In this document: piece by piece, positions 10,061 to 35,473 of the stretch | How positions within the stretch are numbered: position 1 is the first letter of the stretch | Layout of the letters: the number at the start of each line of letters is the position of its first letter | Source: Psychrosphaera sp. B3R10 | Lineage (GTDB): Bacteria > Pseudomonadota > Gammaproteobacteria > Enterobacterales > Alteromonadaceae | DNA: 36,484 bases | Reading direction: 5' to 3' | NCBI RefSeq assembly: GCF_018861025.1 | Contig: NZ_JAHKQH010000004.1 | Span: forward strand, 1-36,484 | Made by a program: the position numbers and the translations under genes | The notes under the pieces: model-generated | What the model saw: the letters and a program-made list of their open reading frames with translations, nothing else | What the model was told of the DNA's origin: nothing | Database searches by the model: none

Positions 10061-10123
10061 CTTCATTCTTTTAATTTACACTCATCTTGCGACAGCATGA
10101 CAAAGTCCCTTTAAATTGTTTTA

Positions 10124-11551: not shown

Positions 11552-11567
11552 AGTTTAATGACTTATT

Positions 11568-13441: not shown

Positions 13442-13455
13442 TCGATTGTTGTCCT

Positions 13456-14106: not shown

Positions 14107-14115
14107 AACATTCTC

Positions 14116-15171: not shown

Positions 15172-15174
15172 AGT

Positions 15175-18024
15175 TTATGGCCTCCATTCTTTCAGAATAG
15201 TCTGGTCAAGATTTGCGCCTGAGTATGTGTTGTTTCCTAGGGTGCTGTCTAAAAAGTTAACACTGTACAAATTGGCTTTAGAGAAATCGGCACTAACTAA
15301 ATAAGCCTTGTACATTGAGCCCTCCATTAAATTGGTCGCTTTAAAACTTGCCCCTTTACATTGGCTCTGCATAAACTGGGTTCGATACGCTTTTGCCCCC
15401 TGAAAACTCGCATTATCGAGCTGCGATCCAGAAAAATCGGCTTCGTCTAGCTTCGCTTGGTCAAATTTGGCATCAACCAATTGATTCTCTCTAAAACAAG
15501 CTCGACTGCCATCGATTCCGGTAAAGTCACTGCCATTAAGTTCACAGCCACCAACAAATCGAACATTTATCATCTGCGCTTGTTGGAAATTATTATTGTT
15601 TGAGATTGCTTTTACAAAGTTAACACCATCTAAAATAGCTTTAGTAAAATCACAATCAACAAATTGGCCTTCGACAAAGTTCGCTTCAGCAAGATCCGTT
15701 TCAATAAACTCACAATTTCTAAATACCGGATTAACAAAGTTGCACTTTTTCAATTCCGAGCCATTAAATATGGTTTGTTCAAATGTGGTATCTAAAAAAT
15801 TACCTTCAGCCATTGGACAGTTAATTAACTTTGCTCTAGTGAAATTCGAACCGCCTAATTGGCAACCCGCCAAATTAGCATCCGTGAAGTCTGCATCGGT
15901 TAGGTTAGCGGCACCGATATTGGCCCCTTGGCAATCGGCATTCCGTAAAATGGCATTCTCTAGATTTGCGCTAGCCAAAATAGCTTTACTTAATTTAGCA
16001 TTGGTCAAATTGCAATTGGCGAAATTTACACCTTCTAAATAACAATCTGACAGGTCAATCCCGGTCAAGTCCTCTCCAGATATGTCTATACAAGCATAGT
16101 CACCACTTACTAACGATTCGCCATTTTTAAACTGTTGAAGAAACTGCTGTTTCAGATTTTGTTCTTTTTCTGGATGAGGTGAGCGCATTTCTCCCATAAG
16201 GTGTGCGCCCATTAAATAGGTTTCTTTATGTTTAATCCCGGCCTCAATGATTTGCTGTTCGAGTTTCTCTGCATCAAAATCAATTTTGGGTATTTCAGAC
16301 TCTGGGATGCCTGCTCCGCGTAATTCAGAAATTTGTAACTCTGCTTCCGAAAGTTGTTGCCGTAATTCAGAAAGTTGTGGCGACATATCAAGTCTAGGCC
16401 ACATTGGAGGCATATCCATTTCAGTCATTATTTGTTCGATTTCAGATATCGCTGGTGCAAGTGCCTCTGCATCACTGCTCTGTTTTATAAGCTCGAGTTC
16501 TTTCTCTATATGTTCTCTTGTTTGCTGCTTTGCATTTTCAACCATTTGTTCTTGATAAGCTTTAATTTCGTCTAATACAGTCAAATCTATATTAAAAATA
16601 TCTATGTTGTCTGGCTCTGTTAGAATGCCTGGCATCATCCGCTCTAACATTGCTTCGATTTGAATTTGCTCATCGGCTTTTTCAGGATTATTGATTTTTT
16701 CTAAATACGGAGTCGGGTCGACACCCGCCACTTTGCACTGCTCAATTACTTTGAGTTTAGCGTCCTCTATTTTATTCGATGCGTCTAATAGACTGCGCTC
16801 GCCAAATGATTCCAAATTATCTTTTGCTAGTAACTCTAATGGAAAATCAAAGTCTTCTTGAATCTGCTGAAAGCCACACTTCATGCCTTCGGCAATTAAT
16901 GGAGCGGAAAACAAAGCATATTTATAACCATGTTTGAGGTCTAGGCGCTTTGTTAATTGATCTTGATAATGGGCTAATGTTCTAGGCGTATCTTTGCGAT
17001 TTTCACAGGCCAGTAACAAGGCTTTTATATCCGAACCAATATCTGAATACGCTGCAATCGTCCCCCTGTATATCATCACACCTAAATCGGAGTTAGGAAA
17101 CAAGTATAAAGTATCAAGTTTGGTTGGGATTTCTTTAAACTGAATTTCCATCTTTCCAGTGGCATTGCCACTATTGTCAACAACTGGCACCTGCTGATTA
17201 ACAAAAGCACGTCCATAAATGGGTGGTAAAGTACCCGACAACTCTTGGTGTTTGGCATGCATATTAGTAATCGAAAACTGCTCATCTCCATTAAAAAACC
17301 CGTCGAGCCACTGGTCTTCCGCCGCATCATTAAAATAGAGCCAGTTTACGTCGTCCGGTAATCCCGGCATGCGGGTTTCAATGTATTTTTGGTCAAACGT
17401 TCCTGCCTTTTCTACGCGCGGAGTGTTCATGATATCTATACGGCCAAAACTGGCAGGTTGCGGTTTTGAGCCCGGCGAGGTAATTAGATTACTCTTATAT
17501 TCAATATTAGGCAAAAACTGACGCTCGCCAAAATCGGTTGTCACTTCTATCGCGCCTTTCCCGCCAGGGTTTGGCTTAAACCCTTCACCACCGAAGGCTT
17601 TTTGGTACGTAATTGGCATTTCTGTAAATAGCTCTGGCGAGCTCGGAGTAATGCCCGCACCTAATAATTTATACCAATGCCGGTCGCCAAATATTGCCAG
17701 CTCTTTTTCAACGGCGGTTTGATAGGTCCCTTGCTTTGTTTTGCTTTTGACCGTCAGCTTAACAGAGCCTGCTTCAACTTTTTGATTATTCGGTGGAATA
17801 AAACTCCCCGCTACTAAAACTTCACCAACCTCTTTTGGCATCGCGGCATCAAAGATTTCCCCATCTAACTGCTCACCAATTACTTCCCACAACTTTTGTT
17901 CAAGTAATATTTCACCATTAGTAAGAGAGAAACCAATGGGAATAGAGACCGTAAACAAGTTTTTTTCCAAATAGGAAAAAGATTTATACAAAACACCAAG
18001 TTGAAGCGGCTTTTGAATTTCCAT
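15175..18024 (-). CDS. DUF2169 T6SS adaptor fused to C-terminal pentapeptide repeats
   Basis: 949 aa. Residues about 1-340 match the DUF2169 family (FGDRHWYKLLG, ITYQKAFGGEG and the pattern around PASFGRIDIM are recognisable). A charged, Met/Gln/Glu-rich helical linker spans about 450-620, and pentapeptide repeats fill about 640-945. DUF2169 is one of the adaptor/chaperone families that sit next to vgrG and help load PAAR-type cargo onto the spike. It starts 3 bp after vgrG stops and ends 3 bp before the next gene, so all three are probably translated together. No toxin motif was recognised, so adaptor is the favoured call; the pentapeptide half could bind or ensheath the spike (inference). 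Confidence 0.88.
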   Translation of the reverse strand: MEIQKPLQLGVLYKSFSYLEKNLFTVSIPIGFSLTNGEILLEQKLWEVIGEQLDGEIFDAAMPKEVGEVLVAGSFIPPNNQKVEAGSVKLTVKSKTKQGTYQTAVEKELAIFGDRHWYKLLGAGITPSSPELFTEMPITYQKAFGGEGFKPNPGGKGAIEVTTDFGERQFLPNIEYKSNLITSPGSKPQPASFGRIDIMNTPRVEKAGTFDQKYIETRMPGLPDDVNWLYFNDAAEDQWLDGFFNGDEQFSITNMHAKHQELSGTLPPIYGRAFVNQQVPVVDNSGNATGKMEIQFKEIPTKLDTLYLFPNSDLGVMIYRGTIAAYSDIGSDIKALLLACENRKDTPRTLAHYQDQLTKRLDLKHGYKYALFSAPLIAEGMKCGFQQIQEDFDFPLELLAKDNLESFGERSLLDASNKIEDAKLKVIEQCKVAGVDPTPYLEKINNPEKADEQIQIEAMLERMMPGILTEPDNIDIFNIDLTVLDEIKAYQEQMVENAKQQTREHIEKELELIKQSSDAEALAPAISEIEQIMTEMDMPPMWPRLDMSPQLSELRQQLSEAELQISELRGAGIPESEIPKIDFDAEKLEQQIIEAGIKHKETYLMGAHLMGEMRSPHPEKEQNLKQQFLQQFKNGESLVSGDYACIDISGEDLTGIDLSDCYLEGVNFANCNLTNAKLSKAILASANLENAILRNADCQGANIGAANLTDADFTDANLAGCQLGGSNFTRAKLINCPMAEGNFLDTTFEQTIFNGSELKKCNFVNPVFRNCEFIETDLAEANFVEGQFVDCDFTKAILDGVNFVKAISNNNNFQQAQMINVRFVGGCELNGSDFTGIDGSRACFRENQLVDAKFDQAKLDEADFSGSQLDNASFQGAKAYRTQFMQSQCKGASFKATNLMEGSMYKAYLVSADFSKANLYSVNFLDSTLGNNTYSGANLDQTILKEWRP

Positions 18025-18027
18025 TAT

Positions 18028-21000
18028 CTAACTCAATAATCTTATAAGGCCTGAGCCAATATAGGCGCCAGCAGTTTTGATTCCCGCACCTGCAGTCTCA
18101 ATTTTTGTCGCCGTAGTACTTAGATTAGAAACTGAGTTTTTTAATTCTGTTAGCTTTGTTTTTATTTGTACAGCATCAAATTCAGTTGCTGCAGTCAAGC
18201 TAATTTCGGCCCTAATACCAGCACTAATGTCAGCCCTCAGTCCAGTAACAACGTCGGTGCATGCAGCTACATCAAGAGAGAATCGTGCAGCAATACAAAT
18301 ATCATTTTTAAGCCCTAAAAATAGATCGCTTGTTGCCGCTAAAGACATTGTCGACGAAGCTGCGAATTTGAATTCACTAGTCCCGCCCATAAAAAATGTG
18401 TCATCCCTGCCCCATTGTTTGGTGTAACTATTCCCCATAACGACATCATACGTATCTCCATCTGTGTAGCTCGCTGCATTGCCGTAAGTCTCAGAATCTG
18501 AATTACCCACAGTTATTGAAATGTCATCGCCATTTTTATAGTTATAAGAATTGCCAATTTCCTTGCTCGCAGAGGTTGTGCCTCTTGATAGAGTAAAACC
18601 ATAATGCTTAGATGTGATATCTCCATATCTCGGCCCACCTGGAGAGGCTTTATCATGAGCATGCGTTGCATTAATAGTTTCTGTATTGGAATTAATTAAA
18701 CTTTCAACATAACCATTACCGAATGCGTAATCAGCTGGATCACTACACCATTCAAATCGACGACCATGGTGGTATTCATATTCATCCCCCCACTTCATCT
18801 CAACTATTTGATTTTCTGGGTCGATTGCGCGAGTTTCATCGCCCCAGTTATACAAACCGGTAGTACCGTCTGCTAAGTGATCTGGATCGGTATTTAACGC
18901 ATTTGAAATTGCCGACATGTCTGCACCAAAATACTCTTCATTGTCATCAATGCCATCTTCATTAATATGAAATTCGTCCCAACTATTACCGAAATCAAAT
19001 ATCTTGTCAGCGCCATAAATATATTCATTTCCTGAAGACCAAACATAGCGCTCGCCAATTCGACGTTCGATAACAAAGTTACCGGCCAATTCATCTTCTC
19101 GAGTCATCGCGCCATCTTCTGGGAAAGTAGATGGTAGGTTTAGAAAATGACTTGGTAAATCCCCAGAAGAAGTCGCCGTTTTGCCATCGGTTGAATAACC
19201 AGTTACTTTTTCACCTTCGATTTCTTCAATTAACTTTTTAAATTTGAAAGTAAAAACAGCTTGTTCATCAACAATATCATTGCCTGATTTTAACGAACCA
19301 CTTTCAGTGTTTGAACCTGAAGCGGCATCAAGCGAAGCATTCGCGCTATTGCTGTCCTGGTCACTAATATTAACTACCGTACCTGACCCATCTTCAAAAT
19401 AGTAATTACTAACACTAACAAAGCTCTGGTAGCCACCTTTGACTTCTTTACGCTCCATTCCCGTCGTCATCAATACCCAGCCATCGCCGGCGTGGTTGGG
19501 CGCACCTAAATGCATATAGGTTTTGTTGTCTCCGGTTTGTAATTTAATGCGGTTTTTACCGTCTTGATCTTCCAGTTCAATTTTATTACCAGAGCCCGTT
19601 TTAATTAAGCTGTTGGTTTGGTTATCCGCTGTCGTAATACTTGGTTGTGAGGCATTTGGCACAGTGCCCGCGATAACAGGTCGGTCAGGATCGCCACCAA
19701 TAAACGTGAGCAATACTTCAGTACCCTTTCTCAAAGGGAAACTCATACCTTGTCCCTCGCCACCATAGGGTTGACTCATTCGGATCCAATGGGACGATTT
19801 TCCGCCGTCACGATTCAACCGGTCAAAAGGTAACGTAACTCGGTAGCGGCCTTCTTCGTCTAATTCGGCATAATGACCATCACCTTCCGCATCAACAAAG
19901 GCGTTTAATGTGCCATGAATTTCTGGCTTAGTAGTAACTTGACTGCTCCGATATTGAATGTCGGCCGGAATTGCGGAAAACGTATTTTGATATACGACGG
20001 CTTCACCTATGTCTCCGTCTGCGTAGTGCAATAGACTTGGGTTCTTTGCTTCGTGTTCAATGTTAAGCAGTAAATAATCTTGATTACAACTCGTTCTAAA
20101 ATGCCCTTCAAGCGTAAATTGATGCCCTGATATCAATCTAATAACGGTACTTTCACCATAATACACCGACTTTGTGCTACTAATTTCTTCGGCTCGAATT
20201 TGAGCAAGTTGACCACCTTCTTCAGGGGTTTGTATATTTTGTCCCCACACATAAATCTCACTCGATGGATTAGCAGATTCATCAACGATAAACTCGCCTT
20301 TGATATCGACCGAGGGTTTATCATCGTTGTAATCTTTCAATAATACTTTGTGGGGTAATCGTTTCTTTTGATTGATAAAACTAGTGATTGTATTTGCTAA
20401 AGCGTTTATTTCTAATGAGGCGTTTGGACTATAAGTTACATCACTGTTTGTAATATCTTCCTGCGTTTGCAATGAATCACAGAACACTAACTTTTCACCT
20501 ATTTCACCCTGGGTGAAATAATAATAAATGCCATCGCGTTCCATTAATCTAGAAATAAATTCTAGGTGGCTTTCATTATACTGACACTTATAAGCCCAAT
20601 TTCGATAATTACCTTGTAAGCCCGAAAGGTCGTAATCTTGCGTGGTAAATCCAGCCTCTTGGAGTACCATTTCTATTATTTCTTTAATATTTTGATCTAA
20701 ATAGATTTCATTCGTGTGAAACAGTGATAATTCCCAAAGTTTCGGCACCAATTTGGCTTTATATAGTGTCTGGTTGTTAACCTGAGAAACTGCATCACAA
20801 TGGGAAATTATTCCTTGGATGACTCTTTCTTCGTTACCCAAAGTAATGGTCAACGACGCTTGTGTCTCAAGAATTTTGTCGATATCAATATCGGGATTGA
20901 CAGACAATAACTCAATTTCAAACTCATATAGACGAGAAATACCTTCTGTCCCTTTAAAAGACAACACTTGAACCTTGTCGTCTGCAGACAGAGCATTGTG

Positions 21001-21030
21001 TTCGAATGAAAACGCTATTGTATTGTCCAC
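18028..21030 (-). CDS. tssI: VgrG (TssI) spike protein with a long beta-helical C-terminal extension
   Basis: 1000 aa, against roughly 600-700 for a plain VgrG. The gp27-like hub spans about 1-370 (signature YNESHLEFISRLMERDGIYYYF at 151-172) and the gp5-like OB fold about 370-460 (SQPYGGEGQGMSFPLRKGTEV, GDPDRPVIAG). A short gp5C-type strand region follows (470-540), then a Ser/Asn-rich insert (about 545-655). Next is a repeat region (655-870) with GERYVWSSGNEYIYG, YEYHHGRRFEWCS and GNSYTKQWG motifs, typical of elongated beta-helix needles, and a final helical part (945-985). The start is GTG at 21030 with AGGAG 8 nt upstream. No catalytic motif was recognised in the extension; a longer needle that docks the DUF4150 tip is favoured over an evolved effector VgrG. 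Confidence 0.93.
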   Translation of the reverse strand: MDNTIAFSFEHNALSADDKVQVLSFKGTEGISRLYEFEIELLSVNPDIDIDKILETQASLTITLGNEERVIQGIISHCDAVSQVNNQTLYKAKLVPKLWELSLFHTNEIYLDQNIKEIIEMVLQEAGFTTQDYDLSGLQGNYRNWAYKCQYNESHLEFISRLMERDGIYYYFTQGEIGEKLVFCDSLQTQEDITNSDVTYSPNASLEINALANTITSFINQKKRLPHKVLLKDYNDDKPSVDIKGEFIVDESANPSSEIYVWGQNIQTPEEGGQLAQIRAEEISSTKSVYYGESTVIRLISGHQFTLEGHFRTSCNQDYLLLNIEHEAKNPSLLHYADGDIGEAVVYQNTFSAIPADIQYRSSQVTTKPEIHGTLNAFVDAEGDGHYAELDEEGRYRVTLPFDRLNRDGGKSSHWIRMSQPYGGEGQGMSFPLRKGTEVLLTFIGGDPDRPVIAGTVPNASQPSITTADNQTNSLIKTGSGNKIELEDQDGKNRIKLQTGDNKTYMHLGAPNHAGDGWVLMTTGMERKEVKGGYQSFVSVSNYYFEDGSGTVVNISDQDSNSANASLDAASGSNTESGSLKSGNDIVDEQAVFTFKFKKLIEEIEGEKVTGYSTDGKTATSSGDLPSHFLNLPSTFPEDGAMTREDELAGNFVIERRIGERYVWSSGNEYIYGADKIFDFGNSWDEFHINEDGIDDNEEYFGADMSAISNALNTDPDHLADGTTGLYNWGDETRAIDPENQIVEMKWGDEYEYHHGRRFEWCSDPADYAFGNGYVESLINSNTETINATHAHDKASPGGPRYGDITSKHYGFTLSRGTTSASKEIGNSYNYKNGDDISITVGNSDSETYGNAASYTDGDTYDVVMGNSYTKQWGRDDTFFMGGTSEFKFAASSTMSLAATSDLFLGLKNDICIAARFSLDVAACTDVVTGLRADISAGIRAEISLTAATEFDAVQIKTKLTELKNSVSNLSTTATKIETAGAGIKTAGAYIGSGLIRLLS

Positions 21031-21078: not shown

Positions 21079-22098
21079 TTATAGCAAATTGAGGGTTGTC
21101 ACTAACACATCTTCAACACCGTCTTTCTTACCATCTGTATGATTTTGTTCTTGCAATAGCCACGTGTCGTATCCTAATTGCCCCCATTGCTTTTCACCTA
21201 AACGGATACCTTTGGCCGCCTTTGTAATCAACCCTATTTTAATGTCGACTTCAAGAGGTCTATCTATATACGTTTTTACTAAGGCAATAAAAGCCTGCCA
21301 GCGATTTTTATTATTAACTAACTGCTCAAATGTGCCCTGTGACAAAGGTCCCAAATGAATAATTATTTTCGAGCTATTATCTATCACTTTATCACCGACC
21401 AATGCCGAACATCCCAATTCACATGAATTAACACCGAGTGAAGATAAATGTTGAAGAGGCACTATCACTTGTCGTTCGACATATTGTTCTACAGACACAT
21501 CCACTTTTAACTCAGCTAAATAAGTTTCAAGTAACGACTTTAACCCTTGAGCGGAACGTTGCTTACTTGCCAGTAGCCCCGAGAACTTTAACAGCATGTC
21601 CGGGGTTATTAATTTTTGCTGTAAGCTTATATCACTCGTGCCAATTAAATGATGTAGTAGTTGGCTAAAATCACGTTTTTGAAATTCAACGACCTGACTT
21701 ACTGCATTATATTTCTTCTGGGCTAACGCAAATAGTTGATACAAGCGTTGATGTACTATGTCTAAAAACTGCCGAGCTGTAGTTTGCTCTTCTTGCTCAA
21801 ATTGCAATAATTCTTCGGTATAGAAGCTAGGCAATGGAGATGACGAACCGTACAATCCGAGTATATTGGTTACAACTTCAAATTCACCATATGAATTTTT
21901 TGTAACTGAAACAATTTCACTTCGACTAATTTGCATAGAAAGTGCTGGACGTACTCGTATTTTTTTTAGCGGATCTTCACCACTTGCCTTCACAATTGCA
22001 TATAAGTTTGTGAGCAATCGTTCGAAAGTAAATGTTTTTGGAGACGTTAAAATTCGCTCTTCTACTGAAGGGCTCGTTTGCCTAATTGTGCTGGCCAC
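21079..22098 (-). CDS. tssG: TssG baseplate wedge protein
   Basis: 339 aa. It carries the TssG/VasB signature: an N-terminal FTFERLL segment, then VVTNILGLYGSSSPLPSFYTE and RQFLDIVHQRLYQLF. TssG forms the baseplate wedge with TssE, TssF and TssK. The start is GTG at 22098, inside the end of tssF, with a near-ideal GGAGGTGA (22103-22110) 4 nt upstream. The 37-bp overlap with tssF implies coupled translation of the two partners. Confidence 0.95.
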   Translation of the reverse strand: MASTIRQTSPSVEERILTSPKTFTFERLLTNLYAIVKASGEDPLKKIRVRPALSMQISRSEIVSVTKNSYGEFEVVTNILGLYGSSSPLPSFYTEELLQFEQEEQTTARQFLDIVHQRLYQLFALAQKKYNAVSQVVEFQKRDFSQLLHHLIGTSDISLQQKLITPDMLLKFSGLLASKQRSAQGLKSLLETYLAELKVDVSVEQYVERQVIVPLQHLSSLGVNSCELGCSALVGDKVIDNSSKIIIHLGPLSQGTFEQLVNNKNRWQAFIALVKTYIDRPLEVDIKIGLITKAAKGIRLGEKQWGQLGYDTWLLQEQNHTDGKKDGVEDVLVTTLNLL

Positions 22099-23788: not shown

Positions 23789-24211
23789 CTAGTTGACGCT
23801 ATCAAATTGTAAATTGCCGTTAGCTAACACGGCGCCAGTAAATGTGATGTCAGTCACTTCTGCATCTTGAAAAATAGAGCCACTGATCTCAAACCTAACT
23901 AACAAATTATCTTCCTCGTTAATTTGCATTTTAATCAAAGGCTTTGTTAATCGCGGTTCATATTGATGGATTTGAGCCAACATTCTTTTTACTATCAGTT
24001 GCGGATCTGGTGGCCTGTTACCAATAACTTGAGTCGCATCACCTAACAAACCATATTCTTGATCAACTTCGACTGACCCTAACGGGGTATTAAACAACTT
24101 TTCCAAATGATTCAAAATCGACTGTTTTACAGAGATCCGTTTACTATTCGCTCTTTGTTCACTGTCTAAATCAAGGGAAGCTAGACGTTCAAATAATCGT
24201 AGATGACTCAT
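23789..24211 (-). CDS. tssE: TssE gp25-like baseplate protein
   Basis: 140 aa from the ATG at 24211 (MSHLRLFERL). An in-frame start at 24277 exists but would overlap hcp2 by 61 bp and add a basic leader unlike the family, so the shorter start is preferred. The gp25/GpW core is visible (ILNHLEKLFNTPLGSVEVDQEYGL). TssE joins the wedge and starts sheath polymerisation. It lies 5 bp after hcp2, so it probably relies on translational coupling. Confidence 0.93.
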   Translation of the reverse strand: MSHLRLFERLASLDLDSEQRANSKRISVKQSILNHLEKLFNTPLGSVEVDQEYGLLGDATQVIGNRPPDPQLIVKRMLAQIHQYEPRLTKPLIKMQINEEDNLLVRFEISGSIFQDAEVTDITFTGAVLANGNLQFDSVN

Positions 24212-24216
24212 AATAA

Positions 24217-24705
24217 TTAGTCGGCCCCTTTCGCTTGGGTTTCGTATTCCACGTCGCCGTCGCTGCCATAACTCCATACTATTTTTTCGTAACTAATGGT
24301 CAAATTTTCCATTAAACGATAACCGTCATGCTGAGTATCGTATAGATGTGGCGACCAAGTCTCTATTTTGGTTAACAGTGCGTTTTCCAATTTAATCCGG
24401 TACATTAATTCTCGGTCACCTACCGTTGTATGAACATACCAACTTAAAACAACTTCACTGAGGACTTCTCTGTTATCAAGAGCTTGCGCCAGTTTTGGGG
24501 TGCTTTTGTCCACCAACTTATTAATCTGTATACCTCTATGAACAATCTGCCCTGAAGATACCTGATTATTAGCGGAACGGGGGATTTCTATTTGGTGATC
24601 AAATTTTAATACTTCAATCTCCGTCTCGTTACCTTCGTAACGTGAACTCCCTTCTATAACCCCTTGAATATCACCTCGTAGAGTTAAAAATCCAATCATT
24701 GCCAT
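24217..24705 (-). CDS. tssD: Second Hcp tube protein (hcp2)
   Basis: 162 aa. Hcp fold signatures are VLKFDHQIEIPRSA, GQIVHRGIQINKLVDKSTPKLAQAL, VVLSWYV and NLTISYEKIVWSY. It has no toxin extension, only a short acidic tail. AAAGGAA lies 6 nt before the ATG. It follows the TssB-TssC fusion by 15 bp and precedes tssE by 5 bp, so it belongs to the second sheath module. It is clearly a different paralogue from hcp1 (32865-33410); both share the K-x-(V/I)-DKS-(S/T)-P motif. Confidence 0.93.
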   Translation of the reverse strand: MAMIGFLTLRGDIQGVIEGSSRYEGNETEIEVLKFDHQIEIPRSANNQVSSGQIVHRGIQINKLVDKSTPKLAQALDNREVLSEVVLSWYVHTTVGDRELMYRIKLENALLTKIETWSPHLYDTQHDGYRLMENLTISYEKIVWSYGSDGDVEYETQAKGAD

Positions 24706-24720
24706 GTCGATTTCCTTTGC

Positions 24721-26451
24721 TTAATCTACGTTCATCGTGAGACTTAAACTGAAGTCTTTACCCATAAATCGTAAATGAGGCACGATCGTTAGGTCTAAAG
24801 ATTGTTCACCATTAATATCTGGTGCAGATAAAACAACTTCAGCTTTTTTTAGTGGCTTTCGGGCTCGAATTGCCTCTGCAGGATTTTCAACGTCTGACAC
24901 ATAACGTTTTAACCATTTGTTTAGTTCTGTTTGTACTTGGATCAAACTTTTCTGGACCCCAATTGACTCCCTTTGCACTACCTTCAAATAATGCACTATT
25001 CTTGAAACGATAAATATATAAGGGAGTTGTGCTTCCACTTGGGAACTAAAATTTTCACTTGGATCTAGTGATTTATGAGCCGAGAAATTCCCCCACCGAA
25101 CTGACGCTGAAGAGGTAAAGAATAAATTTTGTTGGGCTTTGTTGTAAGCCAGCGTTAAAAAGCCTACATTCGCCAAATCCATCAACTGCCGCTCAGAAAT
25201 CATGGCTTCAATCATGTAGTTTGGAAACAACTGCTTAGAGGTATCGGTTGAGTGGTACATATCAACACTACCACCGACGTGACCCGTTAAGTCAGTGCAA
25301 ACGGCATATTTAGCGAAACTATTAATCAGGCATTTTGCAAAAGCAAACGAGGCATTTCCTAACAAATTTTGGTTTACATTCTCTGCCACGCTTTCTGAGT
25401 ATGGAATTGCGTCAATTTCTCCGGCTCCAAGTTTATAAGCCTCTCGGAGCTTAACTCGTGGTAATGCTAAACCAATATATGCTGAATCTAATGTTTTTTG
25501 AAATGATCGCCACTTAATGTATCGAGGTGAAGACATCAACTCAGGGATGTCACTGATAATCTCTAATTGACTAAAATCCTCTTCATTGAAAAATTTAGGT
25601 GAAGCACCTGCGATAAATGGCGCATGAGCTAATCTACATACCTTCGCGATATTTTTGAGAAGCTGTAAGTCTTGACTACCCGCAGAAAAATAGTAATCAG
25701 CAATAATTGCACTATAAGGCTGACCACCGTATTGAGCATATTCTTTTAGATAAACGGCATCATACAATACTGTATCTTGTATTTCTCTATTGGCTTCAAA
25801 ATCCTCTTCTAAAGACGCCTTACTTATGTCGAGTATTTCGATAACGCAACTTTCTGCCAGCTCTTCAGAAAAAACTAGGCGATATAGGTTTCGCCATATC
25901 GATTCGAGTTTTTGGAACTGTTCGTTTTGAATAACCTGTGACAGTATTTCATGCAGGTGCTCATTTATATCAAATAGAATAAATGGCAATTCGTCAAAAC
26001 TCGACACCGCATAATCGATGCCGCAATGAGCTAATAAAGCCTGCTCTTTTTCATCTAGCACCACATTGTTTAATGTCGCTTGATTAAGACATAGTTTCAA
26101 TTTCTTAATCAACGCTACATGCTGATAAAGGTAATCAACTGACATCAATAGACTTTCAGGCTCGAAATCAGAGATTCGCGCAATGGATACATCTATATCA
26201 ATATAGGTGACGCGATTATTATCAAGGTCGACCGCTAATTCAAAAGAAACTTCGACATCCATTGCCGCGAGAACTTGGTTAAAGCTTCTCGTATCAATTT
26301 GGGTTGCATCATCAAAGTCTTTTTGGAATTGCCCGCTAAAGTCTCCAAGAATTAATAGCTTTAGTGGTAAAGACACGTCTTCACCACTATCAGCAGACTG
26401 ATAGGTAAACTCCATCCGATCCCATGAAGGGGATGATATTAAATCACTCAT
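24721..26451 (-). CDS. Single-chain TssB-TssC fusion sheath protein
   Basis: 576 aa. Residues about 1-140 align with TssB (MEFTYQSADSGEDVSLPLKL, LILGDFSGQ, then FNQVLAAMDVEVSFEL and ISDFEPESLL), matching the separate TssB of this locus at ELPMKILVMGQFSSQ, FDEVMGSMDLDINF and LKDFTPDKLV. Residues about 165-576 align with TssC throughout: YGGQPYSAIIADYYF, RLAHAPFIAGASPKFF, LPYIFIVSRIVHYLKVVQRE, TELNKWLKRYV, RKPLKKAEV. The N-terminal arm of TssC (about the first 75 residues, including the helix known as the ClpV target) is absent at the junction. It overlaps tssM by 8 bp and precedes hcp2 by 15 bp. Possible roles are an alternative sheath subunit, a baseplate-proximal ring, or a non-recycled sheath. 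Second TssC-like genes are known in alpha-proteobacterial imp clusters, but I do not know this fused form as a described component. Confidence 0.9.
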   Translation of the reverse strand: MSDLISSPSWDRMEFTYQSADSGEDVSLPLKLLILGDFSGQFQKDFDDATQIDTRSFNQVLAAMDVEVSFELAVDLDNNRVTYIDIDVSIARISDFEPESLLMSVDYLYQHVALIKKLKLCLNQATLNNVVLDEKEQALLAHCGIDYAVSSFDELPFILFDINEHLHEILSQVIQNEQFQKLESIWRNLYRLVFSEELAESCVIEILDISKASLEEDFEANREIQDTVLYDAVYLKEYAQYGGQPYSAIIADYYFSAGSQDLQLLKNIAKVCRLAHAPFIAGASPKFFNEEDFSQLEIISDIPELMSSPRYIKWRSFQKTLDSAYIGLALPRVKLREAYKLGAGEIDAIPYSESVAENVNQNLLGNASFAFAKCLINSFAKYAVCTDLTGHVGGSVDMYHSTDTSKQLFPNYMIEAMISERQLMDLANVGFLTLAYNKAQQNLFFTSSASVRWGNFSAHKSLDPSENFSSQVEAQLPYIFIVSRIVHYLKVVQRESIGVQKSLIQVQTELNKWLKRYVSDVENPAEAIRARKPLKKAEVVLSAPDINGEQSLDLTIVPHLRFMGKDFSLSLTMNVD

Positions 26452-29400
26452 GTTCAGTTAATACCGCTGCAGTAAGCACACCTGTGTTCCAGCAACTTGA
26501 AATCGTTCTAGGAATTTCTAGTTGCTTACGGTCAAGCGCTTCTAACAATGCATTCTGCCCAGACATAGTGTATTGCAGGTCCACATAGCTAACACCGGCC
26601 TCTCTTAACCTATCGGCTAATTCAGGAAAGTCTCCGGCCGTAAACCTTTTTTGACCAGTTTTAAAGTCTGCCAAAAAGTTAGGGAAACCAAGTTCACCTT
26701 CATACCGTTTTTCCAATACAAACCGACCTATATTAATTCTAAGCTTAACTTCGCTGCAACTTTCCCCCCACTTAAACATTTGGCTATTAGCAAAATTTTG
26801 ATTAACCAAAATAGTTGAACCTTCAGCGCATAGTAATTCTAATTCCGTTTTGCTTACATGATATTTTGCGTCCAAATTAGTGCCTGTTGGTAATGTCGCT
26901 AAGTTTACAGGATAGAACTCTTGCTTGGATTTTCGAGCATCATCAGCCTTTGCTGCAAACTCTAAAAAGCTTGGATTAAGCGGGTATTTAACTTTATCTA
27001 CATCTTTAGCGACAAAGCCTGCGCCTAGTCGTTTAGCTACAAAAGGAGCCAATTGTAAATCGAGAAACGACCATAGCATTCCTTGTTCTCCAAAGACCAT
27101 ATTTGGCACTTTGTAGTTAGGGACACCATCGATATTCGTTAAGAACTCTTGCTCCCAAACATCCTGAACTTTACAAGAAGATTCATTTAACATGTAATCT
27201 TGCATAAGTTCGATAGCACCGCCATAGAGTGCCCAGAACGCAGAGTTGCTTGGGGTTTCTTTGCCAACAATTGCCTGAAGTTTCTTGAGGCTGCTATACA
27301 CACTGGCTAGACTTCCGTCACCCACGGCAGGGTTATCCGGTGAAGAAAATAAACTACTAATCGCAGCATGTGATACTGAGCGCATTTCAGCGCTATATAC
27401 AAAACTCCCTAACGACTCTCTATATTCACCAAGAAGTTTGCCTGCTTCTTCCAATTGCATTTGTCGTTCATCAGGTGAAGGTCCAGAAGCGCCTTTTGCC
27501 ATTTTCTTCTGGGTTTTCATGCCCTTTTTTCCAGCTTTCGACAATGCTTTACCAAGCGGACCAGCTTTACCAACAATCTTAAGTGCCATTTTAGTTAACA
27601 TTTTATTCTGAGCACCATCGGTCTTTTGCTCAGGCGCAAACGCACTCATATCTTCGTAATAGAAAACCATCGTTGCCCACTCTGGCAGTTCGACATCGTC
27701 TTTGTATGGTGCAATTTGTTCATTAACTAAATTAAGTGCATTAAAGTATAAATTACGGCCCGTTGATAAATTATTAACAACCATTAGCCATTCATTTCTA
27801 CTATTTAGTTTCTCTGTCCCTTTGCTAAAGTTCTTAGAAAATCGCTCCCAATTCTCTAAGTACTGCTTTTTATATTCTTGTTCAAATCCAGGTAATATGT
27901 CGTCTAATATGTCGTCATATCGTTCAGTCTGCCTAATCTGCGCAATAAACTGGTCGATGGTTTCTTTACCTTCAACCGTATATGCACCGTTGACTACCGA
28001 ATCAAACGTCATAGCTCCGGTACCAACATTCCAATAATCAGATACTTTAATTTCAGCAGTGCTTGCTACCTTATTTGCCCATGGTATTAACCACTTGGCG
28101 AGATCTTTACTTTTTAGCAAAATATCATTTAGTTGCTCGTCCATTAACTTTGCTTCTTGTTCTATGTCAGCGCGATTAGTCGACCAATTCAACGATTGTA
28201 AATATAGGGTATTAAGTTGAGCGACGATATTTGGATCTTGAATACCAAAAAAGTCTGCATCTGACACACTATATGGTGGCGGTAATGACTCCATATCTGA
28301 ACCTTCAAGATAGGCATCGATTATGTTGATTCTTCGGACCAACGTACTAATAAAAGCAACAATCTTTTCTTCAGAAATATCACTGTCTTGAACAAACCTT
28401 TTTGAGAGTTCTCGAACAAAAAATTGATCGGTTTTTTCTACAATTCGAGCATTGACTCGTTCTGAGAACAAACCTTGTAGTTTAACAATAAAATCAGGTG
28501 TTTCAGAATAGCCCATCCAAGGTGTCCATGAGTGCTCCTCTAGACGTGAAACCATATCTCGAAAATCGTATAGTGACCTTACGTTTGCAGAAAGTTGCAC
28601 CGACTCTTCAAAACTTCCCGCATACTTAGATACTGACGTATCAAGTATTTCTGAATCAGTCGAATAGCTAAAATATAATGCTACTAATACAGCAGCTAAT
28701 GTTGCATTCCACGCCAATGACTTACCAAAAATCCGGCTTCTAACAATACGTTCTGAACGACCGATTGAGCTAACCATATCTCGTTCGCCCGGCAATATTT
28801 TGCTAAGCAGTATCTGGCTAAACAGGCCTCTGCGACCAGAAACCATTCTAGTATTGTCGTCGGCTGCAGTAAAATAAAGTGACCTAAAGTTAGGTGTTTT
28901 TTGATATGGGTTGTTTTGAAACAAAGAACCACAAAAGATTGAAAGGTGTCTTTCCAATTTTTCAAACTGGCTAGGTAAAAGCAGTAATTCCGGAGTGACA
29001 GTACTGTCTTTTATCGCATTAAGCATCAATTGCTTAATTCGCTCTGCGAGCTCACCGACAGTGTGACCAACAAAATTTGCCGCTGTTAAGCCATCGTTAT
29101 TAACCTCGCCAATCGGTTGGTTTAGTTTAGCTCCAGGCAACGTCTCAACCCAATCATTAAAACCTGGCATTTTGTCTGTATGAGTTATAACAACATAAAC
29201 TGGCACAACGACACTGAGTTGTTGCATCAATTGTTCGATTGCTCGGCGTGACTCAATTGCCTTTTCGATAAGTTGCTGGCTTTTCTCACCAAGCAAATCT
29301 TCCATCGTTAAAGTAACAACAACACCATTTATAGGTTCTTTAGGACGCTGTTTGCGTAACAATTCTAATAACAGATGCCACTTAGGGTTATTTTTATTAT

Positions 29401-29935
29401 CGTCGGTAGAATTAATATAACTACTTGGAACATCAAGTGCGATACCTTGATTAAATAGTTTCCAATTTATATCTTGCTCAGTTTTGTCCAACCCTTGTAA
29501 ATCTATAGTTGGTGAAGATAGGTTGGCTTCATTTAGTAAAAATGACTTACCACTTCCGTTTTGGCCTATAACTAAATACCAAGGCAAAACGTACATTGGA
29601 TCGCCATGAACTTTTAGATAGCTCTGGCGCAACAGTTTAGTCATTTGAGAGAAATTTTTCTCTAGCGGCGTTTTCTCAAACGAGAAGTTAAATGAGAAGG
29701 CTGATTTTTTTTCACCCTCTTCAACATTAACCAGTCCTTCAACCTGTTGTTTTGCTCTGTAATACAAAATACCTTTGCGAATAAGCAAAAATAATAACCA
29801 AGCGACAAACACGCCAATTGCGTAATTCACGCCCGTCATCAGCTCTTCACCAGCTAAAACAGCTCCGCCAATCACTAAGCCTGAAATGACTAACCAAATA
29901 AATATGTATAATAATATTTTCAAAAAAATTTTCAC
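26444..29935 (-). CDS. tssM: TssM (IcmF) inner-membrane complex protein
   Basis: 1163 aa, standard length. Membrane segments lie at about 5-28, 37-53 and about 405-425; the large remainder is periplasmic. An intact Walker A, GQNGSGKS, is at 124-131, followed by the IcmF ATPase-like domain (PINGVVVTLTMEDLL, VPVYVVITHTDKMPGF). It forms the trans-envelope channel with TssL and TssJ. The start is GTG at 29935, without a clear Shine-Dalgarno sequence and 38 bp after tssL. Its 3' end overlaps the fusion gene by 8 bp. Confidence 0.95.
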   Translation of the reverse strand: MKIFLKILLYIFIWLVISGLVIGGAVLAGEELMTGVNYAIGVFVAWLLFLLIRKGILYYRAKQQVEGLVNVEEGEKKSAFSFNFSFEKTPLEKNFSQMTKLLRQSYLKVHGDPMYVLPWYLVIGQNGSGKSFLLNEANLSSPTIDLQGLDKTEQDINWKLFNQGIALDVPSSYINSTDDNKNNPKWHLLLELLRKQRPKEPINGVVVTLTMEDLLGEKSQQLIEKAIESRRAIEQLMQQLSVVVPVYVVITHTDKMPGFNDWVETLPGAKLNQPIGEVNNDGLTAANFVGHTVGELAERIKQLMLNAIKDSTVTPELLLLPSQFEKLERHLSIFCGSLFQNNPYQKTPNFRSLYFTAADDNTRMVSGRRGLFSQILLSKILPGERDMVSSIGRSERIVRSRIFGKSLAWNATLAAVLVALYFSYSTDSEILDTSVSKYAGSFEESVQLSANVRSLYDFRDMVSRLEEHSWTPWMGYSETPDFIVKLQGLFSERVNARIVEKTDQFFVRELSKRFVQDSDISEEKIVAFISTLVRRINIIDAYLEGSDMESLPPPYSVSDADFFGIQDPNIVAQLNTLYLQSLNWSTNRADIEQEAKLMDEQLNDILLKSKDLAKWLIPWANKVASTAEIKVSDYWNVGTGAMTFDSVVNGAYTVEGKETIDQFIAQIRQTERYDDILDDILPGFEQEYKKQYLENWERFSKNFSKGTEKLNSRNEWLMVVNNLSTGRNLYFNALNLVNEQIAPYKDDVELPEWATMVFYYEDMSAFAPEQKTDGAQNKMLTKMALKIVGKAGPLGKALSKAGKKGMKTQKKMAKGASGPSPDERQMQLEEAGKLLGEYRESLGSFVYSAEMRSVSHAAISSLFSSPDNPAVGDGSLASVYSSLKKLQAIVGKETPSNSAFWALYGGAIELMQDYMLNESSCKVQDVWEQEFLTNIDGVPNYKVPNMVFGEQGMLWSFLDLQLAPFVAKRLGAGFVAKDVDKVKYPLNPSFLEFAAKADDARKSKQEFYPVNLATLPTGTNLDAKYHVSKTELELLCAEGSTILVNQNFANSQMFKWGESCSEVKLRINIGRFVLEKRYEGELGFPNFLADFKTGQKRFTAGDFPELADRLREAGVSYVDLQYTMSGQNALLEALDRKQLEIPRTISSCWNTGVLTAAVLTEHE

Positions 29936-29973: not shown

Positions 29974-30633
29974 TCATATTGAGATAACTAAAAAGTTCGC
30001 CAAACCAACCAGATCTTTTTTAAAGAAAAAGTAAGCGAAAGCTACGATTAAAATAGGTCCACCATAAACTAGCGGAGAAAAGTCTTTTTTAACGTGTATC
30101 TTCCCTTCAACCTTTTTCTTAGAATAAGCTCCTGGAAACAACGTGGCTTCATCATTCAACTCATCAGCTAACAATTTGTAATTGTCGTACTTTATTGAAT
30201 CAAGTTGTGACTGAAGTCCTGAATCATAAAACTTCCCGGTGAATCCGAGAGTTAAACAGTAATAATATACTTCTCTTATATCCCGCTCTGCAGGGTTAAA
30301 TGGATTTAGTCCATCTAACTTTGTAAAAAACTCAACACCACCTTGGGTTGTATCAAAATAAAAACGTTGCAGTAAATTTCGCCCCCAAACCTTCCTATGT
30401 TCCCACTTTGAAGCGATGAGTTTTTCATCTATAAAAGTTACAACAGCAAAAAGTGCCAACTGGTATTGAGATTTGGTATAACCCCCGTCTAGTGCAAAAC
30501 CCAGTAAACTATCTAACTGGCTAGTAATGTGTGAACGCACAGAATCATAACTATTTTCTTTGTCGATTTCTGCATGTTCAACAACCTGCATGGTATAACT
30601 TAAACTTCCAATAAAGCAGTCAACTAATCTCAT
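29974..30633 (-). CDS. tssL: TssL (DotU) inner-membrane complex protein
   Basis: 219 aa. The cytoplasmic DotU domain shows YQLALFAVVTFIDEKLIAS and WGRNLLQRFYFDTTQGGVEFF, followed by EVYYYCLTLGFTGKF. A single C-terminal membrane segment lies at about 190-207 (YGGPILIVAFAYFFF) with only about 10 residues after it. There is no OmpA-like peptidoglycan-binding extension. AGGGAG lies 4 nt before the ATG; the gap to tssK is 8 bp. Confidence 0.95.
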   Translation of the reverse strand: MRLVDCFIGSLSYTMQVVEHAEIDKENSYDSVRSHITSQLDSLLGFALDGGYTKSQYQLALFAVVTFIDEKLIASKWEHRKVWGRNLLQRFYFDTTQGGVEFFTKLDGLNPFNPAERDIREVYYYCLTLGFTGKFYDSGLQSQLDSIKYDNYKLLADELNDEATLFPGAYSKKKVEGKIHVKKDFSPLVYGGPILIVAFAYFFFKKDLVGLANFLVISI

Positions 30634-30641
30634 GTCGCTCC

Positions 30642-32033
30642 CTAACCTCTTACCAAAACCATTTCAATAATCAAATCGTCCGGGGCATCGTCCCAATGTA
30701 CTGCAAACATTCCTTCTTCTTCAATTGCCTTCCATTTACTGCTGGTTCGATCAATTGTAAAGTAGGTCACTTTAGGACGTTGTTCTAATCCTGTTGGTTG
30801 TTCATCCAAATGAGTGAACTCAACCCCTGGTATTGCGCTTTGTACGTAGCGTTCAACATGGGATTTCGCCCCAAGTTTCGCATAATTTTTAAACGAACTG
30901 ATATAGTCATTCGCCGCTAGATTACTTTCTAACAGCAAGTACATACTATGCTGTCTAACAAAAAATTCGCTTGGTAACTTACAGTTATATGACCCGTCGT
31001 CTTGTTTTTCCAATCGTACCAAAAGCTCTGGACTTACTGTTAACTCATCCAATAAGCTGACTAACAAGGCCTTCGTTTTCTCAAATGACTGGAATAACTC
31101 ACGGTGATTATACTTAATCGTCGAAACGGTTCCGTCTAATGATTCACCTAATATACTGTAGCGTGCAGAAAATGTTGATAATTCACCTATTAATGCTCGA
31201 ATATGGCCAAACATTTCAAATGGCGTAATCGATGGGTGTTCTAAGTAATGATTTAACATTGGGGCATATCGAGCAATCACTCTTAACGCACTACGGTAGC
31301 GTTCTGAAACCGGATTAAACTCGGCACTTCTTGAAGTAGAAGTATTTTTATAATTTTCCAGTTGTTTAGAACGCCCGAGTAACTCGTCTCTAATCTCTTT
31401 AAGTTGATCCATCATAATGGAAGACGCATTGATGCAAACGGAAGCTGGAATGAACTCTTTACTGAACATCACGACGTCTTCAATTTCTTCAAGCTTAGTT
31501 ATTGGCATAATTAAACAATCTGAAAACTGTTCAATTTCGTCCTCAAATATTAACCTAACGACATATTTCATCGTTTTAACAGTAACTGACTGGTCGCCTT
31601 GATGGACATCTTTAATCGATTCACCCTCGATACTTGACACGTAACGGGTAGAGATAATTTGGCTATTATCATAACTTGGAACCTGAGTAACATTACTTCT
31701 ACTATCACTGAGCTTTGAAATTACTGCTAAAACGATTATGCCTTTGGTACGATCTTGCCAGTGGCTTTCAAAACTGCGAGGCGCAATTAACGCATTTTCA
31801 GGAAACGAAACTAATGAACCATCTTCGTACAATACATCAAGAGTATTTAGCTCTACAAAGCCCCTATTAAGTGCTTGACTGTCAAGATGCATATTCGAAA
31901 CGCCCCACGGGAATGGGTTATTTATACCGTAAAGTTGATATACAGCTTGTTGCGAATGCAAAGACTGATATTGAAAGTGTTGAGGCTGAAGGAAGAGTCC
32001 CTGATGCCAAAATAATGGTTTATTGAAATTCAC
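30642..32033 (-). CDS. tssK: TssK baseplate-to-membrane connector
   Basis: 463 aa. The hallmark WHQGLFLQPQHFQYQ is near the N-terminus (residues 9-23), followed by the typical shell domain and C-terminal region (LVSLLDELTVSPELLVRLEK, KSHVERYVQSAIPGVEFTHL). TssK links the baseplate wedges to TssL/TssM. The start is GTG at 32033, preceded by AAAGGA at 7 nt. Confidence 0.95.
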   Translation of the reverse strand: MNFNKPLFWHQGLFLQPQHFQYQSLHSQQAVYQLYGINNPFPWGVSNMHLDSQALNRGFVELNTLDVLYEDGSLVSFPENALIAPRSFESHWQDRTKGIIVLAVISKLSDSRSNVTQVPSYDNSQIISTRYVSSIEGESIKDVHQGDQSVTVKTMKYVVRLIFEDEIEQFSDCLIMPITKLEEIEDVVMFSKEFIPASVCINASSIMMDQLKEIRDELLGRSKQLENYKNTSTSRSAEFNPVSERYRSALRVIARYAPMLNHYLEHPSITPFEMFGHIRALIGELSTFSARYSILGESLDGTVSTIKYNHRELFQSFEKTKALLVSLLDELTVSPELLVRLEKQDDGSYNCKLPSEFFVRQHSMYLLLESNLAANDYISSFKNYAKLGAKSHVERYVQSAIPGVEFTHLDEQPTGLEQRPKVTYFTIDRTSSKWKAIEEEGMFAVHWDDAPDDLIIEMVLVRG

Positions 32034-32864: not shown

Positions 32865-33410
32865 TTAATCGTCAAATGCGACTAATTCTGTATTTTCACC
32901 ATTTGACGATGAATCTACACATTCAGTTCCGCAAATGTCATGTTTCCATGCTATTGCATTAAAACTAAACTGCAATTTTTCTGTAGCCATATAATTATCA
33001 TTGCTAGGATCCATTGCATTAGGCGACACTGTAGAAAGGCTTATCAGTTTCGCTTCTGCTACTTTAATTTGATAGTAACGTACAGGCTCACCACCACTTG
33101 TTTCATCAGGTGAACGATAAAATTCAATATGGATATTCAAGTCTGTAGGTTGAGACAATAGTTGCGCCAATATTGGACTACTTTTATCAATCAATTTTGT
33201 TATTTCAAAGTATTCATGCCTTCTGACCCCAGTAACTTGACCATTTCTTGGATCTATCGGTAAAACACTTTTTTGCTCAAAAGCCTGGGCAAATATCTTA
33301 TCTAAATGCTCTTCTTTATAGTATGAAGCTATACTTTCTTTAGACGAAGCACCTTCTGTCAGGTTATTCCCTTCAGCATCTTCTATCGTCACAAAAATTT
33401 CGTTTGGCAT
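32865..33410 (-). CDS. tssD: First Hcp tube protein (hcp1)
   Basis: 181 aa from the ATG at 33410. An upstream in-frame TTG (33416) exists, but AGGGA is better spaced (about 10 nt) for the ATG. Hcp signatures: VTIEDAEGNNLTEGASSK, GVRRHEYFEITKLIDKSSPI, LNIHIEFYRSP, KLISLSTVSPN and EKLQFSFNAIAWKH. After that core there is a tail of about 25 residues with the pair CGTEC and an acidic, Ser/Asn-rich end. It forms the hexameric inner tube that is fired and secreted. It lies downstream of tssBC with stem-loops on both sides, suggesting separate control of mRNA level. Confidence 0.93.
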   Translation of the reverse strand: MPNEIFVTIEDAEGNNLTEGASSKESIASYYKEEHLDKIFAQAFEQKSVLPIDPRNGQVTGVRRHEYFEITKLIDKSSPILAQLLSQPTDLNIHIEFYRSPDETSGGEPVRYYQIKVAEAKLISLSTVSPNAMDPSNDNYMATEKLQFSFNAIAWKHDICGTECVDSSSNGENTELVAFDD

Positions 33411-33463
33411 AATCAAAGTTCCCTATCAATAGGTGGTATATCACCATGTTAAATAAATTTATC

Positions 33464-34984: not shown

Positions 34985-35473
34985 TTATTTCTTAACGCCA
35001 ACTTCTTTAACAAGTTGACTTCTTTGGCTTTCATCAGCCAACATATTTTGAATAGTGCGACGCATTTTAGGTACATTACCTAAAGGGCCTTTTAATGCTT
35101 TTAATGCATTTCTTAATTCAATTATTTGCTTTAATTCTGGAACTGATTCAACCAATTTGTCTGGCGTAAAATCTTTGAGGCTTTTAGGAGATAAGTTTAT
35201 TGATAATTCTTCGTCATTATCGGAAAGTTTATTAGGGACTGTAAAATTAATGTCTAAATCCATCGATCCCATAACTTCGTCAAAGTTATTCTTGTTAATG
35301 TTAACAATCTCCCTTTCTTCCATGACTTTATCATCAGCTTGAGAAGAAAATTGCCCCATTACTAGTATTTTCATAGGCAATTCTATTTGGGCATTTGCGT
35401 CACCTACGGCGGGTTTGTATGAAATATTGACCCTTTCCTTTGGTGCTACTGAACCGCTCTTTTTCTTACTCAT
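34985..35473 (-). CDS. tssB: TssB contractile sheath small subunit
   Basis: 162 aa. TssB/VipA signatures: RVNISYKPAVGDANAQIELP, MKILVMGQFSSQ, NFDEVMGSMDLDINFTVPN, SLKDFTPDKLV, and the C-terminal helix rich in Leu/Lys. It is the first gene of the block. AAGGA lies 7 nt before the ATG. It pairs with tssC downstream. Confidence 0.96.
   Translation of the reverse strand: MSKKKSGSVAPKERVNISYKPAVGDANAQIELPMKILVMGQFSSQADDKVMEEREIVNINKNNFDEVMGSMDLDINFTVPNKLSDNDEELSINLSPKSLKDFTPDKLVESVPELKQIIELRNALKALKGPLGNVPKMRRTIQNMLADESQRSQLVKEVGVKK

What the first reader, a model, noticed from the sequence alone, without database searches (positions are those of the whole stretch)
24721..26451. A natural TssB-TssC fusion sheath protein beside a complete separate tssB and tssC
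The 576-aa product carries a full TssB-like half (about 1-140) joined to a full TssC core (about 165-576), while canonical tssB and tssC sit at the head of the same block. Sheath subunits are normally two chains in 1:1 ratio; a fused chain fixes stoichiometry and moves the C-terminus of TssB to the entry of TssC. It may form a special ring (for example the first disc on the baseplate, since tssE/F/G follow), a dominant modifier of sheath length, or an independent sheath.
Basis: partly seen in the sequence, partly recalled or inferred. Interest (0 to 1): 0.88.

Follow-up and report, generated by a model that had tools for sequence, protein, structure and literature searches.

The report
Extra fused sheath protein in T6SS
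Some marine bacteria carry, for their contractile toxin-injecting needle, an additional sheath protein in which the two usual sheath chains are joined into one, paired with a second tube protein, which suggests that the tail may contain a special layer not described before.

Summary
Window 24721-26451 (-) is an intact 576-aa chain with a TssB half (about 12-140) and a TssC half (160-574), beside separate tssB, tssC and hcp1. It is no local accident: ten genomes in six families carry it, in all ten between tssM and a second hcp followed by tssE-F-G, and with a separate tssB-tssC. Fusions group together and branch much like their TssC partners; one comparable pair shows purifying selection (dN/dS 0.096). 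All ten lack 47-58 residues of TssC's N-terminus, where the ClpV-recognition helix lies, and TssB's GPLGN motif. ClpV over cut-off was found in 2 of 10 genomes. Other TssB-TssC fusions, alone in the stretches read, arose separately. Best explanation, inferred and untested: fusion plus Hcp2 form a dedicated sheath-tube disc on the baseplate from which ordinary sheath and tube grow. Weak, tssM-linked translation signals and the tssEFG neighbourhood fit; strand-level evidence is mixed. My searches of the held library found no report of such a fusion.

The parts
24721..26451 (-). TssB-TssC fusion sheath protein, 576 aa; TssB half about 12-122 (to 140 by TIGR03358), joint about 113-158, TssC half 160-574
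24217..24705 (-). hcp2 (second TssD tube protein), 162 aa, directly after the fusion in all ten loci read
   Evidence: PF05638 1e-27, TIGR03344 126.8 bits; order
34985..35473 (-). separate tssB
   Evidence: TIGR03358 177.8 bits
33501..34958 (-). separate tssC, with its N-terminal stretch intact
   Evidence: TIGR03355 609 bits; N-terminus
32865..33416 (-). hcp1 (TssD)
   Evidence: TIGR03344 125.6 bits
32080..32787 (-). tssJ
   Evidence: PF12790 8.2e-12; TIGR03352 29.1 bits, just below its cut-off of 31.6
30642..32033 (-). tssK
   Evidence: PF05936 4.3e-93
29974..30633 (-). tssL
   Evidence: PF09850 1.2e-32
26444..29935 (-). tssM; its end overlaps the start of the fusion by 8 nt
   Evidence: PF14331 2.7e-44; overlap
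23789..24277 (-). tssE; the listed start overlaps hcp2, the real start is probably internal (near 24211)
   Evidence: TIGR03357 65.9 bits
22062..23780 (-). tssF
   Evidence: PF05947 3.6e-123
21079..22098 (-). tssG
   Evidence: PF06996 5.9e-72
18028..21030 (-). vgrG (tssI)
   Evidence: PF05954 1.3e-71
13028..18024 (-). cargo block: DUF2169 with pentapeptides, pentapeptide protein, DUF3540, PAAR-like

Best explanation
Shown: a type VI secretion locus with two sheath-tube gene sets, (1) separate tssB + tssC + hcp1 and (2) a fused tssB-tssC + hcp2, the second between tssM and tssE-F-G in every locus read. Inferred: the fused chain makes one ring of sheath subunits around one Hcp2 ring directly on the TssE/F/G baseplate; its donor strands would reach TssE and its inner gp25-like domain would accept donor strands of the ordinary TssB/TssC subunits of the next ring, so it works as a nucleating adaptor disc for the ordinary sheath and tube. 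Because the joint removes TssC's N-terminal stretch, the disc would offer no ClpV (or substitute unfoldase) handle and would stay with the baseplate when the rest of the contracted sheath is taken apart. Steps shown: gene content, order, joint, loss of the stretch, parallel divergence, purifying selection in one pair. Steps inferred: location, copy number, strand exchange, resistance to disassembly.
For: Order tssM-fusion-hcp2-tssE-tssF-tssG in 10 of 10 genomes found to have the fusion. Fusions group together (98/98, 59 rows; 100/99, 32 rows without G536) with the branching of their separate TssC partners apart from G709, whose partner is unresolved. Hcp2s part from Hcp1s (98/96, 22 rows). Shine-Dalgarno pairing of the fusion is weak (mean -3.2 kcal/mol, n=10), like tssM (-2.8, n=10) and unlike tssB -6.6 (n=9), tssC -5.4 (n=10), hcp1 -6.2 (n=8), and its first in-frame start lies -50 to +14 nt from the tssM stop: this suggests low, tssM-linked amounts. 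Of residues invariant in the separate chains, fusions keep 0.61 in the gp25-like acceptor domain but 0.19 in the N-terminal TssB arm. One paper states that the two linkers of each subunit go to the ring nearer the baseplate and that TssE was proposed to accept those of the first ring (PMC5813253, section 8 read); on that description the arm of a first ring would no longer meet ordinary subunits.
Against: No localisation, copy number or interaction data. The P. aeruginosa structure paper describes the TssB strand as donated to a neighbour within the same disc and only the TssC strand to the same protofilament (PMC5807055, passage); on that description a diverged arm argues for rings made of fusion only and does not tell a first disc from a whole tail. 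The C-terminal donor strand keeps 0.54 of invariant residues, no less than the body (0.51-0.61); the gp25-like domain is not significantly better kept than the body (0.61 against 0.55, p 0.17); the joint keeps 0.14; the pooled donor test (nominal p 0.008 and 0.025, sites taken as independent) is driven by the arm. Hcp2 has a strong mean ribosome-binding energy (-5.8, though -0.2 and +1.9 in G094 and G536) and G536's fusion a strong one (-8.6). Codon adaptation sets tssC and hcp1 above fusion and hcp2 in the two Psychrosphaera genomes but not in G141 or G978. In V. cholerae the first ring looks like ordinary sheath and no additional protein seems to lie between VgrG and Hcp (PMC5813253).
Confidence: 0.36

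Rival explanations
1. Second, independent tail: the fusion polymerises with itself around Hcp2 on the shared baseplate and membrane complex, giving two interchangeable sheath-tube types from one locus, the fused one not recycled by ClpV.
For: A fused sheath gene plus its own hcp is present in 10 of 10; TssB-TssC fusions that are the only TssC-like ORF in the 20-kb stretches read exist in another T6SS lineage, so a fused chain probably can form a whole sheath; hcp2 has a strong mean ribosome-binding energy; the diverged arm fits rings made of fusion only (PMC5807055). The order fusion-hcp2-tssE-F-G resembles the B-C-D-E-F-G order of many T6SS loci (recalled).
Against: Weak translation signal of the fusion next to the tssM stop.
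Confidence: 0.22
2. Mixed-in modifier: fused subunits are built into ordinary rings here and there, altering stability, contraction energy or ClpV access along the sheath.
For: Domain content of the ordinary subunit is kept.
Against: The N-terminal TssB arm has lost nearly all residues invariant in separate TssB: 0 of 10 columns kept by 7 or more of 9 fusions. The paired Hcp2 is unexplained.
Confidence: 0.13
3. Distal end cap or length terminator, standing in for TssA.
For: TssA (PF06812) was found in only 1 of 9 fusion genomes tested.
Against: G709 has TssA and ClpV together with the fusion. On the description of PMC5813253 a terminal ring should keep its donors; the arm is diverged, though the tail strand is not.
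Confidence: 0.1
4. Not a tail part: a soluble assembly factor that holds Hcp2, TssE or sheath subunits before assembly.
For: Fast evolution relative to the separate sheath chains (branch lengths).
Against: About 0.61 of the invariant residues of the gp25-like domain are kept, 22 of 48 columns by 7 or more of 9 fusions.
Confidence: 0.1

Closest known systems
TssB/TssC (VipA/VipB) heterodimer of the T6SS sheath
   Same: Both folds present in the order of the operon; the match to the solved VipB chain 3j9g_B starts at its residue 9, about VipB residue 69 if the model starts at 61 as PMC5048182 says (passage)
   Different: One chain; TssC's N-terminal stretch with the ClpV helix and TssB's GPLGN motif are missing, with a joint of about 45 residues; present in addition to the heterodimer
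TssB-TssC fusions as the only TssC-like ORF read in their 20-kb stretch (G027, G020, G049)
   Same: TssB then TssC in one chain
   Different: 645-703 aa, both domains over NCBI cut-off; in G027 and G020 nearly whole TssC (TIGR03355 from profile position 3-4), in G049 from 40; separate clade 100/100: a second origin
Several sheath and tube proteins of the antifeeding prophage (Afp2/3/4 sheath, Afp1/5/7 tube)
   Same: More than one sheath and one tube protein in one contractile particle (PMC12961389, one passage read)
   Different: Extracellular system with single-chain sheath proteins (recalled); no homology test was made
R-pyocin sheath
   Same: Sheath without the outer domain 3 (PMC5807055, passages read); single chain and not recycled (partly recalled)
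   Different: Not made by joining TssB and TssC; used as the whole sheath (recalled)
Double TssC clusters (adjacent TssC-like genes in G024, G049, G054, G032)
   Same: A second TssC-like chain in the locus
   Different: Matched over the TssC part only; different tree position where included

Membership tests
T6SS sheath large subunit TssC | VipB N-terminal and gp25-like domains | tested here: met
   PF05943, PF18945, TIGR03355 over cut-off
T6SS sheath large subunit TssC | N-terminal stretch with the ClpV-recognition helix (LLDEI-like) | tested here: not met
   47-58 N-terminal TssC residues face a gap in 10 of 10 fusions; the first 45 all face a gap in 9 of 10, G536 the exception. In 8 fusions scanned the TIGR03355 match begins at profile position 36-55
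T6SS sheath small subunit TssB | VipA domain | tested here: met
   PF05591 over gathering score; but TIGR03358 below its cut-off, 60.3 of 97.25 bits
T6SS sheath small subunit TssB | GPLGN/GPIGN motif of the C-terminal stretch | tested here: not met
   Present in 10 of 10 separate TssB, in 0 of 10 fusions; the residues after it align weakly
Type VI secretion system locus | TssB,C,D,E,F,G,J,K,L,M, VgrG, PAAR-like | tested here: met
Type VI secretion system locus | ClpV (TssH) | tested here: not met
   No match over cut-off in the window's genome; its best match is ClpB. Over cut-off in 2 of 10 fusion genomes, G709 and G774
Type VI secretion system locus | TssA | tested here: not met
   PF06812 found in 1 of 9 fusion genomes (G709), not in the window's; G978 not tested
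Baseplate adaptor disc (eCIS-like) | location next to the baseplate in few copies | not testable with these tools
   needs microscopy or mass spectrometry

The most novel reading that the evidence does not exclude
A T6SS subtype whose tail has a dedicated first sheath-tube layer, made of a fused TssB-TssC chain around a second Hcp, that nucleates the ordinary sheath and escapes recycling, so that contracted sheaths are taken down to a reusable baseplate-bound stump.
Probability: 0.27. Interest if true: 0.8.

Novelty: new variant of a known kind. Interest (0 to 1): 0.62.

Why it matters
T6SS tails are described as one sheath heterodimer and one tube protein from the baseplate up. A co-inherited second set with a fused, trimmed sheath chain says that at least one subtype encodes two kinds of sheath-tube unit. 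That makes two open questions testable by simple deletions and tagging: how the first ring is laid on the baseplate, and what stops disassembly at the baseplate. The second, independent fusion lineage suggests that splitting the sheath into TssB and TssC is not obligatory for T6SS.

Tried and rejected
Rejected: assembly or frameshift artefact (same fusion in nine other genomes, G141 of 1 contig and G978 of 2 among them; purifying selection in one pair). Rejected: fusion as a late result of losing ClpV (G709 and G774 have fusion and ClpV). Rejected: one origin for all TssB-TssC fusions (separate clades). Led nowhere: AlphaFold with 3 rows (mean pLDDT 39); with 10 rows 55, enough only to recognise both halves. 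Codon adaptation gave no consistent difference; G000 was measured against G001's reference genes. Promoter-like (44; shuffles 47.9, sd 6.1) and terminator-like sites (13; 10.1, sd 3.4) were near shuffle level. Plasmids: 436 records matched; of the 15 listed, each match is in two pieces, 14 annotated as tssC and tssB and one as two type VI secretion genes; 421 not seen. Viral contigs: one locus with separate TssB and TssC. The first genome-contig scan found nothing; the second found two named loci. dN/dS for the fusion and Hcp2 in G094/G170 could not be computed.

Not tested: TssA in G978; whether weaker fusions lie below the E-value limits (counts are lower bounds); whether G709's fusion arose separately (in one search it lies between the other fusions and the separate TssC); whether G027, G020 and G049 have a separate TssB-TssC in the same cluster beyond the 20 kb read; hcp1 in G774, whose contig ends inside clpV.

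Full report
What is there. The ORF at 24721-26451 (-) encodes 576 aa without interruption. Pfam and NCBIfam place a TssB domain at about 12-122 (to 140) and a TssC at 160-574. The TssC half is strong; the TssB half is over Pfam's gathering score but below NCBI's cut-off for TssB. Solved chains of VipA/TssB match (best over residues 10-141) and of VipB/TssC (best over 158-574). A weak AlphaFold model (mean pLDDT 55) finds 12 chains at E 0.001 or better, all T6SS sheath: nine for the C-half and three VipA/TssB chains for the N-half.

Surroundings. All on the minus strand: tssB, tssC, hcp1, tssJ, tssK, tssL, tssM, fusion, hcp2, tssE, tssF, tssG, vgrG, DUF2169, pentapeptide protein, DUF3540, PAAR-like. 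The second hcp directly after the fusion is central to what follows.

Relatives. The same fusion was found in nine other genomes: G001, G978, G094, G170, G141, G236, G774, G709 and G536; with the window's that makes six families and seven genera by the tool's labels, all within one class. G001 is Psychrosphaera sp. F3M07 and G094 an uncultured gammaproteobacterium, judged by equal contig lengths (668276 and 25055). G141's size, 4,559,598 bases, equals what I recall for Psychromonas ingrahamii 37; no call names it. By sample, matches that take in the N-terminal half at the limits used: 2 of 60 relatives, 5 of 394 in the order, 4 of 369 in the class, 3 of 295 in the family, 1 of 398 in the phylum (the window itself); samples overlap. 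The other matching genomes matched over the TssC part. In 10 of 10 the order tssM-fusion-hcp2-tssE-tssF-tssG holds and a separate tssB-tssC is present, in 9 on the same contig and in G774 on another; hcp1 was read in 9.

History. In a tree of 59 TssC cores (7 of the 66 rows, cut short or second tandem copies, were dropped) the nine fusions are one group (98/98). Apart from G709, whose partner lies in an unresolved fork, the partners branch the same way; their fork at G001 is weak (85/35), and the partners as a group have only 46/94. The three other TssB-TssC fusions form a clade (100/100) far away. Long branches met for G774 and G536, so I rebuilt without G536's fusion, with G978 and with 10 hand-picked rows of the 38 others: the fusions stay one side of a branch (100/99), G978 joins G141/G236 in both sets, and G709's fusion lies between the rest and the separate TssC. 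One origin is the simplest reading; a separate one for G709 is not excluded. Hcp2 and Hcp1 part at 98/96, with the order inside Hcp2 poorly resolved. For G141/G236 dN/dS is 0.096 for the fusion, 0.075 for TssC and 0.114 for Hcp2. The fusion evolves faster than the separate TssC, yet is kept.

The joint. In an alignment of ten fusions with ten separate TssB+TssC pairs, 47-58 N-terminal residues of TssC face a gap in every fusion, and the GPLGN/GPIGN motif present in 10 of 10 separate TssB is in 0 of 10 fusions (G094's tssB is cut by the contig end). The residues after that motif align weakly, so where TssB ends in the joint is unsure. In P. aeruginosa TssB1 136-172 and TssC1 1-37 are unresolved in the sheath, and TssB 117-133, TssC 66-86 and TssC 39-54 form domain 3 (PMC5807055, passages). 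So the joint probably links the two ordered helices and drops the third. The dropped part contains the helix by which ClpV takes hold of contracted sheaths in V. cholerae and E. coli (PMC4239648 and PMC5048182, passages); in P. aeruginosa H1 that helix is not required (PMC4239648). The separate TssC keep a helix of that kind by eye.

ClpV and TssA. ClpV over cut-off was found in 2 of 10 fusion genomes (G709, G774) and not in 8; the window genome's best match is ClpB, the best matches of the other seven were not identified further. TssA was found in 1 of 9 (G709). Since G709, with ClpV and TssA, carries the fusion too, the fusion is no consequence of their loss. ClpV-less T6SS are known, and ClpB takes part in disassembly in Francisella (PMC7182274, passages).

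Mechanism. Of residues invariant in the separate chains, nine fusions keep 0.19 in the TssB arm, 0.14 in the joint, 0.54 in the C-terminal tail, 0.61 in the gp25-like domain and 0.51-0.61 in the rest. Mean identities, fusion to its own partner against partner to partner, are 29 and 71% in the arm, 38 and 81% in the tail, 48 and 75% in the gp25-like domain. If both linkers of a subunit go to the ring nearer the baseplate (PMC5813253), the arm fits a first ring and the tail does not discriminate. If the arm stays within its disc (PMC5807055), its divergence only says that rings are made of fusion alone. The arm's linker is shorter by 1-5 residues in 7 of 8 comparable genomes and equal in G709 (counted by hand). 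Mean ribosome-binding energy is weak for the fusion (-3.2) as for tssM (-2.8), stronger for tssB, tssC, hcp1 and hcp2 (-5.4 to -6.6); random stretches give -0.95 to -1.6. Starts were taken as the first in frame, and G141 and G236 are near copies. This fits few copies of the fusion but not of Hcp2. Codon adaptation does not settle it. On checking I lowered the first-disc reading from 0.40 to 0.36 and the novel case from 0.30 to 0.27, and raised the independent tail from 0.20 to 0.22, because the two papers describe the arm differently and the gp25-like domain is not significantly better kept than the body.

What is known. A cryo-EM study of the V. cholerae baseplate found a first ring that fits the ordinary sheath and states that T6SS clusters lack orthologues of tube-like proteins such as gp48 and gp54 (PMC5813253, section 8 read). 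Antifeeding prophage has three sheath and three tube proteins (PMC12961389, one passage). Searches of the held library for a TssB-TssC fusion listed four papers in all; I read passages of one (PMC10433429), which report no such fusion, and only listings of the other three. Passages of PMC4239648 found with the words fusion and fused were about two-hybrid constructs (12 of 16 places shown). Subscription journals are largely missing from that library, so absence in print is not shown.

Verdict. A real, conserved, accessory fused sheath chain with its own tube partner: a new variant of the T6SS.

Noticed in passing
L041 (G027) 9507-11444, L042 (G020) 9562-11514, L043 (G049) 8787-10898: TssB-TssC fusions of 645, 650 and 703 aa, the only TssC-like ORF in the 20-kb stretches read, next to tssF and other T6SS genes; separate clade. 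ClpV over cut-off lies elsewhere in those genomes.
   Followed up: partly
window 2-10066: Frame of more than 3355 aa with 12 Big_2 (bacterial Ig-like) stretches after the Sel1 gene, running off the contig; a 3268-aa relative lies at the same place in G001.
   Followed up: partly
window 32826-32857: 13-bp hairpin directly after hcp1 (the 77-nt gap folds at -22.8 kcal/mol); G001 has a different hairpin at the same place, G141 and G978 have gaps of 10-12 nt. May separate sheath and tube expression from the rest.
   Followed up: partly
window 10124-12887: NMT1-type substrate-binding protein and Sel1-repeat protein inside the T6SS block, both also in G001 and G094; an NMT1-type gene follows tssG in G774.
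   Followed up: no
window 33501-34958 and partners: Separate TssC keeps a ClpV-type N-terminal helix, by eye, even in genomes where ClpV was not found, so another unfoldase may use it.
   Followed up: no
window 24217-24277: The listed tssE start lies inside hcp2; an internal ATG near 24211 is the likelier start.
   Followed up: no
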